In this document: positions 31,864-47,015 of the stretch, in pieces
Layout of the letters: every line of letters starts with the position of its first letter
Numbering within the stretch: the first letter of the stretch is position 1
Source of the DNA: Verrucomicrobium sp. BvORR106
Lineage (GTDB): Bacteria > Verrucomicrobiota > Verrucomicrobiia > Verrucomicrobiales > Verrucomicrobiaceae
DNA length: 47,015 nt
Direction: 5' to 3'
Assembly: GCF_000739655.1 (NCBI RefSeq)
Contig: NZ_BATR01000120.1
Location: 1-47,015, forward strand
Made by a program: the position numbers and the translations under genes
Notes under the pieces: generated by a model
What the model was told of the DNA's origin: nothing
Databases searched by the model: none
What the model saw: the letters and a program-made list of their open reading frames with translations, nothing else

Positions 31864-32269
31864 CACGGCTGATGTTGGTTCCTTGGCGATGCCCGCATGC
31901 GAGCATCAGTAAAAGGAGCGAGGGACATTCCTGTCCCGGTTCGCACCAAAAGTTCCATGAGATCGCTGTGGGTTGGGGGTGGGGACTACGATGGCAGTCA
32001 TCCGGCGAATCCTTGCGTTGGAACGCCTGCTGGGTCCGGGACTGGAAAGTCCCTGCCTCCTTCTACTGACCAGTTTCACGGGCGTTCTAGGAATGTACTT
32101 TGAGAAGGTTCGAGGTGGTCAACTGTACCTAGCATGCAACAATAAGAGTCTAGAACCCAGGCGTGAGGGAATATCTGACCCTTTCGCCTGTATATCCTGA
32201 TCATTGAGCCGCAAGGTCGCGAATATTCCTAATATGGCAGAGATCCTCTGCTAGGGAGGCGCGACTCGC
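31864..32269. other. Intergenic region containing a REPIN-like pair and hairpins
   Basis: No gene is supported in these 406 bp. The first half holds the inverted REP pair described separately. Beyond it are an imperfect hairpin CAGGCG/CGCCTG with an internal GGG/CCC (32158-32190) and a perfect 6-bp hairpin GCAGAG-ATC-CTCTGC (32237-32251). Right after the latter lies AGGGAGG at 32253-32259, 10 nt before the esterase ATG, so this last hairpin could influence ribosome access. Confidence 0.65.
31906..32069. repeat. REPIN-like inverted pair of palindromes (family A)
   Basis: Two short palindromes face each other across about 90 bp. The left arm (31906-31943) contains GGGACA-TTCC-TGTCCC; the right arm (32032-32069) contains GGGACT-GGAA-AGTCCC. 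With the left arm reversed, both read CC, GGGACWGGAAWGTCCCT, then CGCTCCTTTTACTGA or GCCTCCTTCTACTGA. The arms therefore match over about 35 positions with compensating changes in the stem. This is the architecture of REPINs mobilised by RAYT transposases. No transposase is in the window. Confidence 0.72.
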
Positions 32270-39517: not shown

Positions 39518-40246
39518 ATGCCCACGTCCCCCCTGCCAAGCATCCCTGCCGCCTCTGAGGCTGCTGAAGCCCAGCCCAAGAAGCCTCCCGCACTGTCGGA
39601 GCAGATCGGGGCGCTTTTGTCGTCGATGGGCGAGAGATCGATCCGCCTGCGCGACATCATAGAGGTGCTGCATGGCGGCACCTATCTCATGTTGTTGATT
39701 TTGCTTTCGCTGCCGTTTTGCATGCCCATCCCGCTTCTGGGGCTGTCCACGCCCTTCGGTGCGGTGATTGCCCTTATTGGCCTTCGTCTGGCCCTGAGGA
39801 AGGAGCCCTGGCTGCCGGACAGGGTGCTGAATGTGGAACTCTCGCCGAAGATGGCCGGTCGCATTCTCGGAGCCAGTCAGAAGGCCGTGCGCGGGCTGGA
39901 GAAGATGCTCCGTGTCCGCTGGTCGTTCCTGGTGGATCCTCCCGTGTTTCAGCACTTGTACGGTGCCATCATCTTTGCGTGCGGCTGCTTGCTGCTGCTG
40001 CCCCTGCCCATTCCCTTCAGCAATGTGCTGCCGGCCGTGCCAGTGATCCTGCTTTCTGGTGCCTTGTTGGAGCGGGATGGCAAGTTCGCCGTCGGTGGTA
40101 TGGCGATGTTCCTCGTGAACCTCGCCTTCTTTGGCGCCATCTTCCTGGGCGGCGGCGTGGTCATCAGCTGGCTGGAAGCCTGGTTCAGCGGCATCTACGA
40201 TCCCGAGGAACACCTCACGCCTGCCTTGGAAGAGATTCTGGAGTAG
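39518..40246 (+). CDS. ExoD-like exopolysaccharide synthesis membrane protein
   Basis: The 242-residue protein belongs to the ExoD family, first linked to exopolysaccharide production in Sinorhizobium; its biochemical role is unresolved. A 30-residue Pro/Ala-rich leader is followed by LSEQIGALLSSMGERSIRLRDI, the conserved start of the family. Hydrophobic segments follow: YLMLLILLSLPFCMPIPLLG (about 52-71), a short one at FGAVIALIGLRLAL, a central pair at about 147-190 (YGAIIFACGCLLLLPLPIPFSN) and a last one at about 200-225. The ATG at 39518 follows an in-frame GTG by one codon. Its location 115 bp after the sigma gene may mean control by it, but this is only positional. Confidence 0.88.
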   Translation: MPTSPLPSIPAASEAAEAQPKKPPALSEQIGALLSSMGERSIRLRDIIEVLHGGTYLMLLILLSLPFCMPIPLLGLSTPFGAVIALIGLRLALRKEPWLPDRVLNVELSPKMAGRILGASQKAVRGLEKMLRVRWSFLVDPPVFQHLYGAIIFACGCLLLLPLPIPFSNVLPAVPVILLSGALLERDGKFAVGGMAMFLVNLAFFGAIFLGGGVVISWLEAWFSGIYDPEEHLTPALEEILE

Positions 40247-40584
40247 AGGAATTGATCCCTCGAACCGAAGACGCAAATCGTCTGGTGCGTCTCGGAACGC
40301 GGCAGGCGCTTGGAGGTCGCAATGCCAAAGGGATCCAAGGAGCGGCGGTTTGTGCCTGAACAACCGCCGAGGGAAAGCGGAGGGCTTGATCGCCAAAGAG
40401 CTACCACCGTATGTGGTCTAGCCGCTGCCTTCTTACTTGAAAACAAGCTTCCTCCGACAACCACCGGCGGTTGTGCAAGCACAAACCGCCGCTCCTTGTG
40501 AAGCTGTGGAGAAAGTTGCCTGATGTGACGCCAGGTGGTTGTGCATCACCTCGTTGTTGCCAAGGCGAGGGGAGTAGCCTTGAT
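40247..40584. other. Convergent intergenic region with REPIN-like pair
   Basis: These 338 bp separate the convergent stops of the ExoD-like and Gfo/Idh/MocA genes. No gene is supported. It holds several inverted repeats: GACGCA/TGCGTC (40270-40291), the REP arms at 40337 and 40465, ACCAC/GTGGT (40403-40417), CTTG-AAAA-CAAG (about 40437-40448) and CAAGGC/GCCTTG (40561-40582). None has a T-tract typical of an intrinsic terminator. Confidence 0.65.
40337..40497. repeat. REPIN-like inverted pair of palindromes (family B)
   Basis: The left arm (40337-40369) and right arm (40465-40497) face each other over a total of 161 bp. Read with the left arm reversed, both give CGGCGGTT, a short variable loop, CACAAACCGCCG and then CTCCTT. 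The stem is CGGCGGTT/AACCGCCG, extended in the right arm by GTGC/GCAC around a bulged A. The stem sequence is unrelated to family A, but overall length, head-to-head layout and the CTCCTT tail are the same. Confidence 0.75.
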
Positions 40585-41760
40585 CTACACCCCCACCCAA
40601 GTCTGCTTCTCACTGCTCTGAAGGATGGCCTCGCAGAGCTTCACCTCATAATGGCCGTCATTGGCAGTCGCATACAGCACAGGGGTGGTCTTCCCACTAG
40701 CGATGTGCTCATACACGGCGCGGTAGTGCATCTTGTGCCCATCAGGGAAGCCCTCGGCATGGCCGCCGGGGTTGTCGGTGAAGTTCGCCACATCTTTGTC
40801 GAATCCGGCGGTGTTACGGGTGAGAACCTGATTGGGCTGGTCGCGATACCCAGCCTGGATTTCGTTGGGCTGCTGGAACTCCCACTGCACGCTGCCCTTG
40901 GTGCCGTAGATGCCCACATAAAGGCTGCACTTCCACCCCGCGGCCACCTGGGAGATGGCACAGTTCGCATGCGTGCCGGATACATGACCATGATCAGCGT
41001 CGCCAAACTTCAACAGCACGCTGCCAAAGTCCTCGGTATCCACTTCATAAGGGACCATGTTGGCGGGGTCCGCCAGGGAGGTGAAGGTCTGCACCTCGCC
41101 AGTGGGCCGGTAGCGGGTCTTGTGAAAGGTCTCGAGCGTGGCAAAGACGGACTCCGCCCGGGCCCCGAGGATAAAGGAAACGGCGTCGATCCAGTGCGTG
41201 CCGATGTCGCCGACGGCCCGCAGTTTGCCGCCCTCGCTGGAGAGCACACGCCAGTTGTAGTCCGTGTTCTTGAGCAGCCAGTCCTGAAAGAAGTGCCCCT
41301 GCACGTGGATGATGCGGCCTAGTTCGCCGCGCTGCACCATGGCGCGCATCTGCAGGATGGCAGGGTAGAAGCGGCAGAGATAGTTCACAGCAAAGACGCG
41401 ATCACTGGCCGCGGCGGCGGCCACCACCTTGGCGGTCTCCTCAGTGGTCATGCCCAGAGGCTTCTCGCACACCACATGCTTGCCCGCAGCGAGGGCAGCC
41501 AGGGACTGCTCCACATGCACGCGGTTGGGCGAGGTGATGTGAACGACGTCCACATTGGGGGAGTTGATCAAGCTCTGGTAGTCGTAGTCACCGTACACCT
41601 CGGGGATGCCCCATTGGTCTGCCAGGGCCCGGGTGCCCTTGGTGGAGCCGCTGATCGCGGTGATCTGAACGCCCAGGCGCTTCAGAGCCTCGATATGGAC
41701 GGGGGCGATGAAACCGGTGCCAATGATGCCAGCGCGGAGGTGATGCAGGGGAAGGGGCAT
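40585..41760 (-). CDS. Gfo/Idh/MocA-family oxidoreductase
   Basis: The 391-residue protein has the N-terminal Rossmann motif AGIIGTGFIAPVHIEAL (about 9-25), NVDVVHITSPNRVHVEQSLAAL and the signature CEKPLGMTTEE (about 95-105), followed by FAVNYLCRFYPAI and a C-terminal beta-sheet domain with GDIGTHWIDAVSFI (about 190-203), which contains the usual Asp-x3-His pair. It would oxidise or reduce a sugar or inositol derivative with NAD(P). Ser in place of the usual acidic residue after the second strand (TAISGSTKG) hints at NADP. Substrate unknown. The golvesin-C protein gene is 86 bp upstream on the same strand. Confidence 0.9.
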   Translation of the reverse strand: MPLPLHHLRAGIIGTGFIAPVHIEALKRLGVQITAISGSTKGTRALADQWGIPEVYGDYDYQSLINSPNVDVVHITSPNRVHVEQSLAALAAGKHVVCEKPLGMTTEETAKVVAAAAASDRVFAVNYLCRFYPAILQMRAMVQRGELGRIIHVQGHFFQDWLLKNTDYNWRVLSSEGGKLRAVGDIGTHWIDAVSFILGARAESVFATLETFHKTRYRPTGEVQTFTSLADPANMVPYEVDTEDFGSVLLKFGDADHGHVSGTHANCAISQVAAGWKCSLYVGIYGTKGSVQWEFQQPNEIQAGYRDQPNQVLTRNTAGFDKDVANFTDNPGGHAEGFPDGHKMHYRAVYEHIASGKTTPVLYATANDGHYEVKLCEAILQSSEKQTWVGV

Positions 41761-44478: not shown

Positions 44479-47015
44479 ATGAAATCGATCGCAATGTCCT
44501 TACGACTGGTTGATGGGGAACTTGGATTCTTGCATCTGCGAACTGCGCAATGGCAGAGGCGGCTGTTGGCCCTGTCCTTTTTTTTCCTGCTATCGCTAAT
44601 TTCGTACTCTCAGATGGTTGATGCAGAGAGGGTCGGGTGTGGTCAGGGATTTACGTTAATTGTCGCAAATGACGGCAGTGTATGGGCAACTGGTGACAAC
44701 GGCTACGGGCAACTTGGGCACAGCAATGCCACGGGGCAGCGGATTTTTGCGAAGTTGGATCAAATTAGCGATGTGAGGGCTGTTTCGGGAGGGCATCTTC
44801 ATAGTGTCGCTCTCAAGAATAACGGAACGGTTTGGGCATGGGGATTCAATGCATCCGGACAGTTGGGCAGAGGGGACAATGCTCATAGCAGTGTTCCGAT
44901 GCCGGTAGTTGGCCTTTCCGACATCGTCCGAATTGCCACCAGTTACAATCACAGTCTGGCATTGAAGTCTGACGGGACCTTGTGGGCGTGGGGCTATAAC
45001 TTTGATGGCCAGCTTGGTGATTCAAGCAATTCTGACCGGAATCTCCCGGTCCAGGTTGCGGGACTCACTGATGTCGTCTCTATGTGCACTGGGGACGGAC
45101 ATAGTCTCGCCCTGAAGCAGGATGGCACTGTGTGGGCTTGGGGGCGAAACAACTCAGGCGCTCTGGGAGATAATACTTTCATTAGCAGTAATACCCCGGT
45201 GCAGGTCAGCACGCTGACGAATGTCGTGGCAATAGCCAGCGGCGGTGGAAAAAGTATGGCATTAAAGTCGGATGGCACAGTGTGGACTTGGGGCGCGAAT
45301 TATGCCGGCCAGCTAGGTGATGGTAGCGCAAGTGACAGGGGACTGCCGGTACAGGTGGCTTCTCTAACAAATGTGGCGGCGATTGCAGGAGGATCGGGGT
45401 ACAGCGTCGCCTTGAAACAGGATGGCACAATCTGGTCATGGGGTGATGGGACATTTGGTCAAATGGGAAACTATACCAAAGTTGGGAGTTATCTGCCCGT
45501 TCAATCTACCGAAACGAGCGGGGAAGTTGTGGCGCTTGTGGCTAATGGTATGCACACGATTGCCATCAGGAGCAATGGAAGTCTTGTTGCTTGGGGCTAT
45601 AACGGTGTTGGGCAACTTGGGCAAGGGTTGCCATGGCAAGGCATCGTGCAGGAAAGCCTGCCACAAGTGGCCAGCGTCGCCACAAGAGGGGATCACAACC
45701 TTGCTATACGAGGCGACGGAAGCTTGTGGGCGTGGGGCTTCAATCACCATGGTCAGTTGGGCATAGGACACATCAATACCACAGGCATCCCGACTCAGGT
45801 TGCAGGCCTGACAGATGTCATATCAGCTGCAGGAGGCCGTTTTCACAGCCTGGCGGTGAGAGGAGACGGGACTGTTGTGGGATGGGGAAACAACAACTAC
45901 GGTCAGGTCGGCGATGGCAGTCTTGTGAGAAGGAATGTGCCCACTTCGGGATCTGGATTAACAGGAGTGGTTGCGGTAGCCGGAGGCACTTTCCATAGCG
46001 TGGCTTTGAAGGGTGATGGAACAGTGTGGGCATGGGGCGCCAATTCGTACGGCCAGTTGGGTGACAATAGCACAACCAATAGAAGCTCTCCGATCCAGGT
46101 GGCAGGATTAAACAATGTGGTGGCAGTGAAGGCGGGGAATTTCCACAATCTGGCTTTGAAGAGTGATGGAACAGTGTGGGCATGGGGCGCCAATTCAGCC
46201 GGGCAGCTCGGCGATGGAAGTACTAGTAATAAACTGGTGCCAGTGCAAGCCAGCGGGTTGTCGAACGTGCTGGCGATTAGTTCCGGCGGACTTCATAGTC
46301 TTGCGCTGACCGCTGATAGAAAAGTGTGGGCTTGGGGGAGCAATTCCACCGGTCAGCTCGGTGATGGCTCTACAGCAAACAGAAATATACCAGTGGAAGT
46401 GAGTGGGCTGGTCGACGTGATGTCGATCGCGGGAGGTGGATCTCACAGTTTGGCAGCTGACCGGAGTGGTAGAATTCATGCTTGGGGTAGCAATTCATCT
46501 GGACAGTTGGGGGACAACACGTCGGCAGATCGTGTGCTCCCGCATGAAGTAAGTGAAATGCAGGGCGCTAAAAGTGTCGCTGCTGGAGTCAGTCACTCTA
46601 TTGCACTTAAAGAAGACGGAAGCATTGCCCTATGGGGGGGGCATGAAAATGGGCAGTTAGGTGAAGGGATTTTGGACCCAGGAGAATGCACGCTGCCTGT
46701 AGGTATCGCCGATCACCTCAATATGTTGTCTGAATGCCCTCTTGCAAGTGTAGTTGAACCTGATGAATCAGGAACCTTGGCCTTGGGGGCCACACAGCGT
46801 CTGGTCGCTGAGGTGCTGACTGGGTCATCGCCAATTGCCAAAGTGCAGTTCTATCATCGTGGGGTTCTGATCGAAGAAGACCTGGCGACTCCTTTCGAAT
46901 CGAATTTTTCGCCGACTACATGGGGTGACTTTAAACTTGATGTCGTGGGAGTGGATTCCAATGGGGTGCGTTCTCCGCATTCCGTTCCGGTGTTAATCAA
47001 TGTTCCCTACGACAG
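44479..47015 (+). CDS. Exported RCC1-repeat beta-propeller protein (3' end beyond window)
   Basis: The open frame runs from ATG 44479 through the window end (845 codons visible). AGGAG abuts the first ATG; a second in-frame ATG at 44494 is possible. A basic stretch and hydrophobic core (RRLLALSFFFLLSLISYS) form a signal sequence. Fourteen RCC1 repeats of about 50 residues follow (44668 to about 46670), each with a variant of GTVWAWGxNxxGQLGDGS; 14 equals two seven-bladed propellers. After them, SPIAKVQFYHRGVLIEEDLATPF and following residues (read in two blocks) begin an Ig-like domain. Eukaryotic RCC1 is a Ran exchange factor; bacterial exported forms are presumed binding or adhesive modules. 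GC is lower than in the genes to the left. Confidence 0.9.
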   Translation, partial: MKSIAMSLRLVDGELGFLHLRTAQWQRRLLALSFFFLLSLISYSQMVDAERVGCGQGFTLIVANDGSVWATGDNGYGQLGHSNATGQRIFAKLDQISDVRAVSGGHLHSVALKNNGTVWAWGFNASGQLGRGDNAHSSVPMPVVGLSDIVRIATSYNHSLALKSDGTLWAWGYNFDGQLGDSSNSDRNLPVQVAGLTDVVSMCTGDGHSLALKQDGTVWAWGRNNSGALGDNTFISSNTPVQVSTLTNVVAIASGGGKSMALKSDGTVWTWGANYAGQLGDGSASDRGLPVQVASLTNVAAIAGGSGYSVALKQDGTIWSWGDGTFGQMGNYTKVGSYLPVQSTETSGEVVALVANGMHTIAIRSNGSLVAWGYNGVGQLGQGLPWQGIVQESLPQVASVATRGDHNLAIRGDGSLWAWGFNHHGQLGIGHINTTGIPTQVAGLTDVISAAGGRFHSLAVRGDGTVVGWGNNNYGQVGDGSLVRRNVPTSGSGLTGVVAVAGGTFHSVALKGDGTVWAWGANSYGQLGDNSTTNRSSPIQVAGLNNVVAVKAGNFHNLALKSDGTVWAWGANSAGQLGDGSTSNKLVPVQASGLSNVLAISSGGLHSLALTADRKVWAWGSNSTGQLGDGSTANRNIPVEVSGLVDVMSIAGGGSHSLAADRSGRIHAWGSNSSGQLGDNTSADRVLPHEVSEMQGAKSVAAGVSHSIALKEDGSIALWGGHENGQLGEGILDPGECTLPVGIADHLNMLSECPLASVVEPDESGTLALGATQRLVAEVLTGSSPIAKVQFYHRGVLIEEDLATPFESNFSPTTWGDFKLDVVGVDSNGVRSPHSVPVLINVPYD
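46013..46196 (+). repeat. Near-identical adjacent RCC1 repeat units
   Basis: A 34-base stretch encoding GDGTVWAWGANS or SDGTVWAWGANS is identical at the DNA level at 46013-46046 and 46163-46196, exactly 150 bp apart, whereas other repeat units differ at many codons. This suggests a recent duplication or gene conversion of one propeller blade. Confidence 0.8.

What the first reader, a model, noticed from the sequence alone, without database searches (positions are those of the whole stretch)
40337..40497. Second REPIN-like pair with unrelated stem but the same CTCCTT tail
The arms share CGGCGGTT...CACAAACCGCCG-CTCCTT and face each other over 161 bp, nearly the same span as the family A pair (164 bp). 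The stem is unrelated to family A. Two families with different stems and the same tail in one 47-kb window suggest that the tail is the part recognised by a shared factor. It lies between convergent genes, a typical REP site.
Basis: partly seen in the sequence, partly recalled or inferred. Interest (0 to 1): 0.72.

Follow-up and report, generated by a model that had tools for sequence, protein, structure and literature searches.

The report
A REPIN with a GGAG tag
The spot holds one of dozens of copies of a small palindromic, probably once mobile DNA repeat in a Verrucomicrobium-like bacterium, and its shared end tag (GGAG, read as CTCC from the other strand) turns out to mark the repeats beside a whole branch of related DNA-cutting enzymes, where better-known relatives carry GTAG.

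Summary
The inverted pair at 40337-40497 is real and far beyond chance (48-nt arms, 83% complementary; DNA fold z -10.6). It belongs to a genome-wide family: 110 arms against 12 for a control; 36 head-to-head pairs, 24 of exactly 161 bp, among 107 arms read. It is a REPIN. The 'tail' CTCCTT is the reverse complement of AAGGAG, at the 5' foot of each REP hairpin. In a congener (Verrucomicrobium sp. BvORR034) the same REPs flank a RAYT gene head-to-head, the likely autonomous parent. Around related RAYTs, mostly of Verrucomicrobiota, 109 of 676 stems are footed by GGAG, with many unrelated stems, against 0 of 93 in shuffles. CAAGGAG runs straight into a hairpin at 75 of 149 places there, against 1 of 149 in a 500-kb sample of this genome with the family masked. 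REP tags in the papers I saw are GTAG/GTGG, CGTC and CnGA, so a GGAG class looks like a new variant of the known REP/RAYT system. Cleavage and mobility are inferred.

The parts
40336..40498 (.). family B REPIN (head-to-head REP dimer), CAAGGAG...CTCCTTG
40336..40342 (+). left head CAAGGAG, with the GGAG foot at 40339-40342
   Evidence: compared with RAYT-flanking REPs
40343..40369 (+). left REP hairpin CGGCGGTTTGTGCCTGAACAACCGCCG
   Evidence: family consensus
40370..40464 (.). spacer; less conserved than the arms (63% against 97 and 99% mean pairwise identity over 36 copies)
40378..40382 (+). internal CGGAG box next to the left hairpin (paired with CTCCG on the right)
   Evidence: conserved; also in the RAYT-carrying element
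40452..40456 (+). internal CTCCG box, partner of the CGGAG box
40465..40491 (-). right REP hairpin (inverted copy)
40492..40498 (-). right head, CTCCTTG = reverse complement of CAAGGAG
40316..40557 (.). approximate stretch without an alignable counterpart at the orthologous site of congener G001 (to about 40585 for G003); both carry other intergenic sequence there
31907..32068 (.). family A element, CAGTAAAAGGAG...CTCCTTCTACTG, second GGAG-bearing family in the window

Best explanation
The feature is a REPIN: two copies of one REP hairpin facing each other around a ~95-nt spacer, a non-autonomous derivative of a RAYT (REP-associated tyrosine transposase) element. The 'tail' CTCCTT is the reverse complement of AAGGAG; its last four letters, GGAG, sit at the foot of the hairpin where other REPs carry GTAG. 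Around this clade of RAYTs the GGAG foot recurs while stems change freely. Shown: the family, its pairing, the RAYT gene flanked by the same REPs in a sister genome, and the GGAG foot at REPs of many related RAYTs. Inferred: the RAYT binds the hairpin as single-stranded DNA, reads GGAG as its foot or guide, and cuts nearby, which copied the element in the past. The copies here look old and the genome has no close partner enzyme now.
For: Genome-wide family: 110 arms at up to 3 mismatches, 92 of them exact, against 12 for the reversed control; 36 head-to-head pairs. RAYT flanked head-to-head by B REPs with the internal CGGAG boxes in G001:C35, although the right foot there reads GTGG. The partner protein P0001 matches Pfam Y1_Tnp at 34.7 bits, cut-off 23; a profile of P0001 and 23 relatives finds TnpArep 4er8 as best solved structure, E 2.4e-7; N124, H125, H127, Y185, N189 and P190 are invariant in the 24. 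Clade rule: 109 of 676 stems of 7 bp or more GGAG-footed, 0 of 93 in one shuffle of each flank, GTAG 0; 48 of 75 loci with at least one GGAG-footed stem of 6 or more, 1 of 75 with a GTAG-footed one; CAAGGAG then hairpin 75 of 149 against 1 of 149. Tree: side of 71 RAYTs has 39 GGAG and 1 GTAG rows, side of 25 has 11 GTAG and 2 GGAG; 4 changes suffice for the 53 labelled rows. Presence/absence between species: the window copy is missing in two relatives; of four other copies compared, one is present in two species and collapsed to one hairpin in a third, one is missing in both relatives, one is partly matched and one is unresolved.
Against: No close partner RAYT in the window's genome: three homologues at 41-44% identity, none with B arms in the loci scanned. 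One RAYT here (C27) has B REPs on its outer sides, but tails inward and with its own GTAG REPs nearer. 27 of 75 loci on the GGAG side show no perfect-stem GGAG hairpin, some with GGTG-like feet. If unlabelled rows are counted as lacking GGAG, the tree needs 19 changes (shuffled mean 31.1, as low in 0 of 500); the split has 88% SH-aLRT in a quick search with an arbitrary root. No cleavage, binding or movement was shown. One subfamily shares ~60 nt of outer flanks, several with outer inverted ends, so the moving unit may be larger than the REPIN. Outside family B, GGAG-footed hairpins are not enriched in the 500-kb sample of this genome.
Confidence: 0.86

Rival explanations
1. The arms are kept by the host as binding sites or mRNA-end structures (REP-like exaptation, bidirectional hairpin at gene ends); mobility is long past. 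This is compatible with a mobile origin.
For: Arms 97.6% identical even among 20 copies whose spacers are 56.6% identical (copies were gathered by their arms); one site kept in three species, collapsed to one hairpin in one; rough context 17 convergent, 13 codirectional, 4 divergent of the 34 pairs of 36 that could be classed.
Against: Half of the classed pairs are not between convergent genes and 4 of 36 lie inside a long open frame; no run of T follows the element in the alignment (the terminator scan was not run); the same REPs flank a RAYT gene. It explains neither the clade-wide GGAG nor the changing stems.
Confidence: 0.3
2. A MITE of an ordinary cut-and-paste (DDE) transposase with terminal inverted repeats.
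For: Length mostly 161 bp and terminal inverted repeats; some copies have outer inverted ends GTCAGGTTAA/TTAACCTGAC.
Against: Each end is itself a hairpin with a GGAG foot; single arms are common (35 of 71 units); no target-site duplication seen by eye; a RAYT lies between the same ends. No search for a DDE gene with these ends was made.
Confidence: 0.06
3. The shared AAGGAG is a chance or Shine-Dalgarno-like hexamer, and A and B are unrelated repeats.
For: AAGGAG is common in this genome: 411 places in 500 kb with family B masked; CTCCTT/AAGGAG 41 in the window against 22.6 expected; A and B differ in foot geometry and stem.
Against: GGAG recurs at the foot of REPs beside a RAYT clade; RAYT-linked REPs in two Opitutales MAGs with near-identical proteins (L290, L296) carry GGAG with the core GGACATTCCTGTCC of family A.
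Confidence: 0.07

Closest known systems
REPINs (Bertels and Rainey 2011, PMC3116915; seen in search listing only) and head-to-head REP dimers (Di Nocera 2013, PMC3733652; passages seen)
   Same: Two inverted REPs around a spacer, many dispersed copies; PMC3733652 reports mostly 20-100 bp spacers, largely conserved in HH dimers, and some dimers nested in larger palindromes
   Different: Foot GGAG instead of GTAG or CGTC; ~95-nt spacers, near the upper end of that range. That paper notes GTAG variants GYAG, GYRG, GTRG, GTMG and GTGG, not GGAG
RAYT / TnpAREP (Nunvar 2010, PMC2817692; NAR 2021, PMC8266576; passages seen)
   Same: Y1 HuH protein flanked by inverted REPs; 4er8 (TnpArep) is the best solved relative of the profile
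   Different: Heads in the passages seen are GTAG/GTGG; here GGAG. Pseudomonas REPs read GT[AG]GGAG before many palindromes (PMC3686654, passages), so GGAG next to a stem is not unseen, but there as GT[AG]G plus GAG; the present heads lack GT[AG]G
TnpAREP subclass 2.7 and class 3 of PMC6006769 (passages seen)
   Same: Median 213 aa, [ND]HVH, WQ and YI[LR][NQ]NP of 2.7 resemble P0001 (212 aa, NHVH, WQ, YIRRNP)
   Different: 2.7 is given with canonical GT[AG]G REPs, class 3 with CnGA; the automatic search there was built on GTAG or GTGG; its main text has no word beginning with GGAG or Verrucomicrob
IS200/IS605 insertion sequences
   Same: Y1 transposase family, hairpins with a guide tetranucleotide at the foot (as told in PMC6006769)
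   Different: Here the element is a repeat family without a close partner gene in this genome

Membership tests
REPIN | two REP hairpins in inverted orientation, heads outside | tested here: met
   36 HH pairs; window copy
REPIN | dispersed multicopy family | tested here: met
REPIN | associated RAYT flanked by the same REPs | tested here: met
   in sister genome G001:C35, with the right foot changed to GTGG; in the window's own genome not met
REPIN | mobilised by the RAYT | not testable with these tools
   only presence/absence between species
REP with GT[AG]G tag (canonical) | GTAG or GTGG at the hairpin foot | tested here: not met
   family B feet are GGAG; around the related RAYTs GTAG is at 0 of 676 stems of 7 or more and in 1 of 75 loci at stems of 6 or more
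RAYT / TnpAREP (partner protein P0001) | Y1 HuH domain | tested here: met
   PF01797 34.7 bits, cut-off 23, covering profile positions 39-120 of 121; H125, H127 and Y185 invariant in 24
RAYT / TnpAREP (partner protein P0001) | NCBIfam REP_Tyr_transpos NF047646 cut-off | tested here: inconclusive
   best family but 69.9 bits against a cut-off of 80
DDE MITE | target-site duplication | tested here: inconclusive
   none seen by eye at the ends in the alignment; no systematic search was made

The most novel reading that the evidence does not exclude
GGAG (mostly CAAGGAG) is a further REP tag class beside GTAG/GTGG, CGTC and CnGA. It is read by one RAYT clade spread through Verrucomicrobiota, in which stems are replaced freely while the tag is kept; two residues in or near the stretch that corresponds to the E. 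coli GTAG-contact residues (Y168 and H178 of P0001, against S/T and E/S in GTAG-linked relatives) are candidate determinants of reading G instead of T at the second tag position.
Probability: 0.6. Interest if true: 0.65.

Novelty: new variant of a known kind. Interest (0 to 1): 0.55.

Why it matters
How RAYTs use the foot tetranucleotide is unsettled in print (PMC8266576, passages: GTAG instrumental in the E. coli system; mutations tolerated for binding in one other system, though they hurt its cleavage, and for cleavage in a third; a role in choosing the cut site suggested for E. coli but not supported by experiment). A natural RAYT clade that changed one tag letter and kept it while stems turned over gives matched pairs of enzymes and substrates to test how the tag is read and whether it sets the cut site (GGAG keeps the A3 and G4 that the guide model uses for CT). 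It also extends REP systems in a phylum where a search that asks only for GT[AG]G would be expected to miss them.

Tried and rejected

C27 RAYT (L036) as B's partner: first taken for the cognate because B REPs lie on both sides; rejected after reading the locus: GTAG-CCAGGGAC REPs lie next to the gene and the B tails point inward. It is not excluded that it acts on B.

Own-genome homologues of P0001: 44, 41 and 43% identity. The C43 one is near GGGAG/TGGAG-GCGGGATT..AATCCCGC hairpins, the C53 one near GTAG hairpins; neither has B arms.

Family A partner: no A-like arm with its hairpin in the loci of the Y1_Tnp hits of this genome (the matches printed there, in three overlapping loci, are AAGGGGC look-alikes). 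Only the stem core in two Opitutales RAYT loci points to a GGAG partner.

Clean empty site: not obtained at the window site, where both congeners have other sequence. Of 14 joined-flank pieces searched (listing capped, many hits to other repeats) I compared four sites.

Rfam: nothing near a gathering score at 39900-40900; one snoRNA hit at 15.4 bits against 42. Literature: no paper held both RAYT and GGAG as whole words or TnpAREP and GGAG; Verrucomicrobi plus 'repetitive extragenic palindromic' gave 4 papers, of which by title only PMC3733652 bears on REPs; Verrucomicrobium spinosum plus palindrom gave 8, none about REPs by title; one unrelated by title. The library holds open-licence papers only. 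RepRanger (PMC12306157) was searched for four terms; only its reference list matched. Bertels, Gallie and Rainey 2017 was not in the listings and is known to me only by citation.

Row choices: one search kept the best 80 of 88 relatives. One search kept 100 distinct RAYTs of 119 loci (identical proteins removed; a locus without a tblastn hit at 1e-8 would drop too). One search used 96 of the 100 (4 under 150 aa left out) and labels GGAG at 2 or more hairpins, GTAG at 1 or more with no GGAG, so the thresholds differ; 43 rows are unlabelled or single-GGAG. One search puts the 4 short rows on the GGAG side by default. Near-identical rows remain (L288/L289, L290/L296, L257/L258). The label of L308 (GTAG, on the GGAG side) rests on one hairpin. 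In one search at least one of the 35 solos (L080) is a chance hit. The 36 pairs were gathered by arm similarity (up to 3 of 19 mismatches), so arm identity is raised by choice, though 92 of the 110 hits are exact. The script did not orient minus-strand loci, so its ORFs for L036-L041 and L044 are not the RAYTs; L036 and L038 were redone.

Full report
What is there. Window 40336-40498 reads CAAGGAG - hairpin - ~95 nt - hairpin - CTCCTTG. It is the longest inverted repeat found in the window (48-nt arms, 83% complementary), and the single strand folds far better than shuffles (z -10.6). Both arms carry CGGCGGTT...AACCGCCG, and the family consensus CGGCGGTT-T-GTGC..GCAC-AACCGCCG has one unpaired T (pairing read by eye). 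The element lies between convergent open frames.

It is a genome family. The window is contig C90 of an 8.69-Mb draft genome. The 19-nt arm AAGGAGCGGCGGTTTGTGC occurs 110 times at up to 3 mismatches against 12 for the reversed pattern; 92 are exact (listing counted by hand). Among the 107 distinct arms in the loci that I fetched, 36 pairs are head-to-head within 400 nt, 24 of them 161 nt long (range 159-172), and 35 arms stand alone (at least one is a chance hit). Aligned, the copies agree from CAAGGAG to CTCCTTG, and the more divergent ones lose similarity outside it. Over 36 copies the two arms average 99% and 97% pairwise identity, spacers 63%, the 50-nt outer flanks 32% and 30%; in the 20 most divergent copies arms stay at 97.6% while spacers fall to 56.6% (copies were gathered by their arms). 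Among 57 genomes searched, the arm is abundant only in the window's genome and two congeners (106, 77 and 19 arms at up to 2 mismatches); the other 54, one congener included, have 0 to 3, no more than the control gives there.

The partner gene. In G001:C35 a 219-aa open frame with a Y1_Tnp match lies between two B REPs head-to-head (L190: 892 + and 1738 -), and the inner CGGAG boxes of the REPIN are there too; the right foot has drifted to GTGG. The protein (P0001) hits Pfam Y1_Tnp over its cut-off and NCBIfam REP_Tyr_transpos below its cut-off (69.9 of 80); a profile of it and 23 relatives finds TnpArep 4er8 best among solved structures. In the same locus a second B pair of 358 nt holds a piece that resembles residues 173-201 of the RAYT, 59% over 29 aa, E 6e-5 in a small set: a hint that REPINs arise by loss of the gene. 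The window's own genome has no close partner: three homologues at 41-44%, and a fourth match at E 0.7 in another Y1_Tnp gene.

The tail explained. CTCCTT is AAGGAG read from the other strand, so GGAG stands directly at the hairpin foot, the place of GTAG in known REPs. I asked whether this holds for related RAYTs, without presetting stems. Homologues of P0001 occur at E<=1e-20 in 65 of 68 genomes of the family. Of 30 loci read there, those nearest to P0001 mostly show CAAGGAG hairpins with unrelated stems, with exceptions such as GGTG-like feet (L217, L219) and loci with none found (L224, L238). With 80 loci from a genome scan, 76 of them Verrucomicrobiota by their titles, 100 distinct RAYTs were examined. 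On the side that holds P0001 (75 loci: 71 by the tree plus 4 short rows), GGAG is directly 5' of 109 of 676 stems of 7 bp or more, the next tetramer 24, GTAG 0; one dinucleotide shuffle of each flank gives 0 of 93. 48 of 75 loci have at least one such hairpin (stem 6 or more), 27 do not, and 1 of 75 has a GTAG-footed one. Forty loci with GGAG-footed stems of 7 or more have 27 different stems; upstream letters lean to CAA (29, 36 and 28 of 40). On the other side (25 loci) GTAG is at 17 of 228 stems; 7 of 25 loci have GTAG, 2 have GGAG (1 in the shuffle). The reverse test does not select hairpins: CAAGGAG is followed at once by a stem of 6 bp or more at 75 of 149 places (41 different hairpins) in flanks on the GGAG side, 0 of 2 on the GTAG side, 1 of 7 in RAYT coding sequence and 1 of 149 in 500 kb of this genome with family B masked. 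The tree (96 rows, quick method) places 39 GGAG and 1 GTAG rows on one side and 11 GTAG and 2 GGAG on the other, support 88; 4 changes suffice for the 53 labelled rows, 19 if unlabelled rows are counted as lacking GGAG (shuffled mean 31.1).

Where the tag may be read. In PMC6006769 (passages) the E. coli residues discussed for GTAG contact are W94, Q95, E100, H101 and R104. P0001 has WQ at 164-165 and D170, R171, R174; this matching is by eye. Position 168 is Y in 39 of 41 GGAG rows (the two with S, L293 and L309, are the two GGAG rows on the GTAG side) and S or T in 11 of 12 GTAG rows; position 178 is H in 40 of 41 against E or S in 11 of 12. The one GTAG row with Y and H is L308, which lies on the GGAG side with a single-hairpin label. 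These residues follow the clade and may be passengers.

History. At the window site two congeners keep both genes but have no B element; other intergenic sequence stands there, so there is no clean empty site. Of four further sites compared, one copy (L029) is at the same place in G001 and, reduced to CAAGGAG-hairpin-CTCCTTG, in G003; another (L020) is absent in both, with a ~240-nt gap wider than the REPIN; at a third (L107) G003 has one matching arm and different sequence after it; the fourth (L130) is unresolved. A subfamily shares up to ~60 nt of outer flanks, several copies ending in imperfect GTCAGGTTAA/TTAACCTGAC ends. So the unit that spreads may be larger in one subfamily.

The tail is not enriched beside hairpins in the sample of this genome apart from B. 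Family A has its GGAG 3 nt off a 6-bp stem, varied spans, and no partner found here; its core GGACATTCCTGTCC with a GGAG foot does occur beside two near-identical Opitutales RAYTs (L290, L296). The phrase 'shared factor' should read 'related factors of one RAYT clade', and that reading is itself an inference from patterns.

Known or new. REPs, REPINs and RAYTs are known, and GTAG REPs are described in Verrucomicrobia (Opitutus terrae; passages of PMC3733652). Tags in the papers whose passages I saw are GTAG with variants such as GTGG, CGTC and CnGA. Searches for GGAG with RAYT or TnpAREP found no paper in this library. Pseudomonas REPs have GT[AG]GGAG before many palindromes, which must be kept in mind when counting GGAG feet. 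I file the element as a REPIN of a GGAG-tagged variant; membership in the canonical GT[AG]G class was tested and is not met.

Noticed in passing
window 44779-46511: 150-nt tandem units (direct repeats D1-D5), many reading like DGTVWAWGxNxxGQLG, as in RCC1-type propeller repeats (name recalled, not searched).
   Followed up: no
L036 (G000:C27), RAYT with flanks: A RAYT flanked by a ~180-nt composite inverted repeat: GTAG-CCAGGGAC REPs inside and family B REPs outside with tails inward.
   Followed up: partly
L031-L038: Eight RAYT-like genes of this genome whose surroundings show inverted repeats with different hairpins (L036 and L038 redone, L037 not), L036, L037 and L038 with GTAG next to a stem by eye.
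   Followed up: partly
L190 2060-2146: Piece resembling RAYT residues 173-201 inside a 358-nt B pair: possible fossil of REPIN birth by internal deletion.
   Followed up: partly
L001-L016, flanks of B copies: Subfamily with up to ~60-nt shared outer flanks, several ending in imperfect GTCAGGTTAA/TTAACCTGAC: REPIN nested in a larger palindrome.
   Followed up: partly
L116 and L333: Collapsed elements CAAGGAG-hairpin-CTCCTTG, as if the spacer and one hairpin were lost between the repeated CGGCGGTT.
   Followed up: partly
L329 (G001:C108), intergenic orthologue of the window site: Other REP-like sequence (GAACTCCGAAGTGAGTTCTACAAA, CCACCCTGGGTA) at the same intergenic site, like the flanks of RAYT L035: the site seems to gather different REP families.
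   Followed up: no
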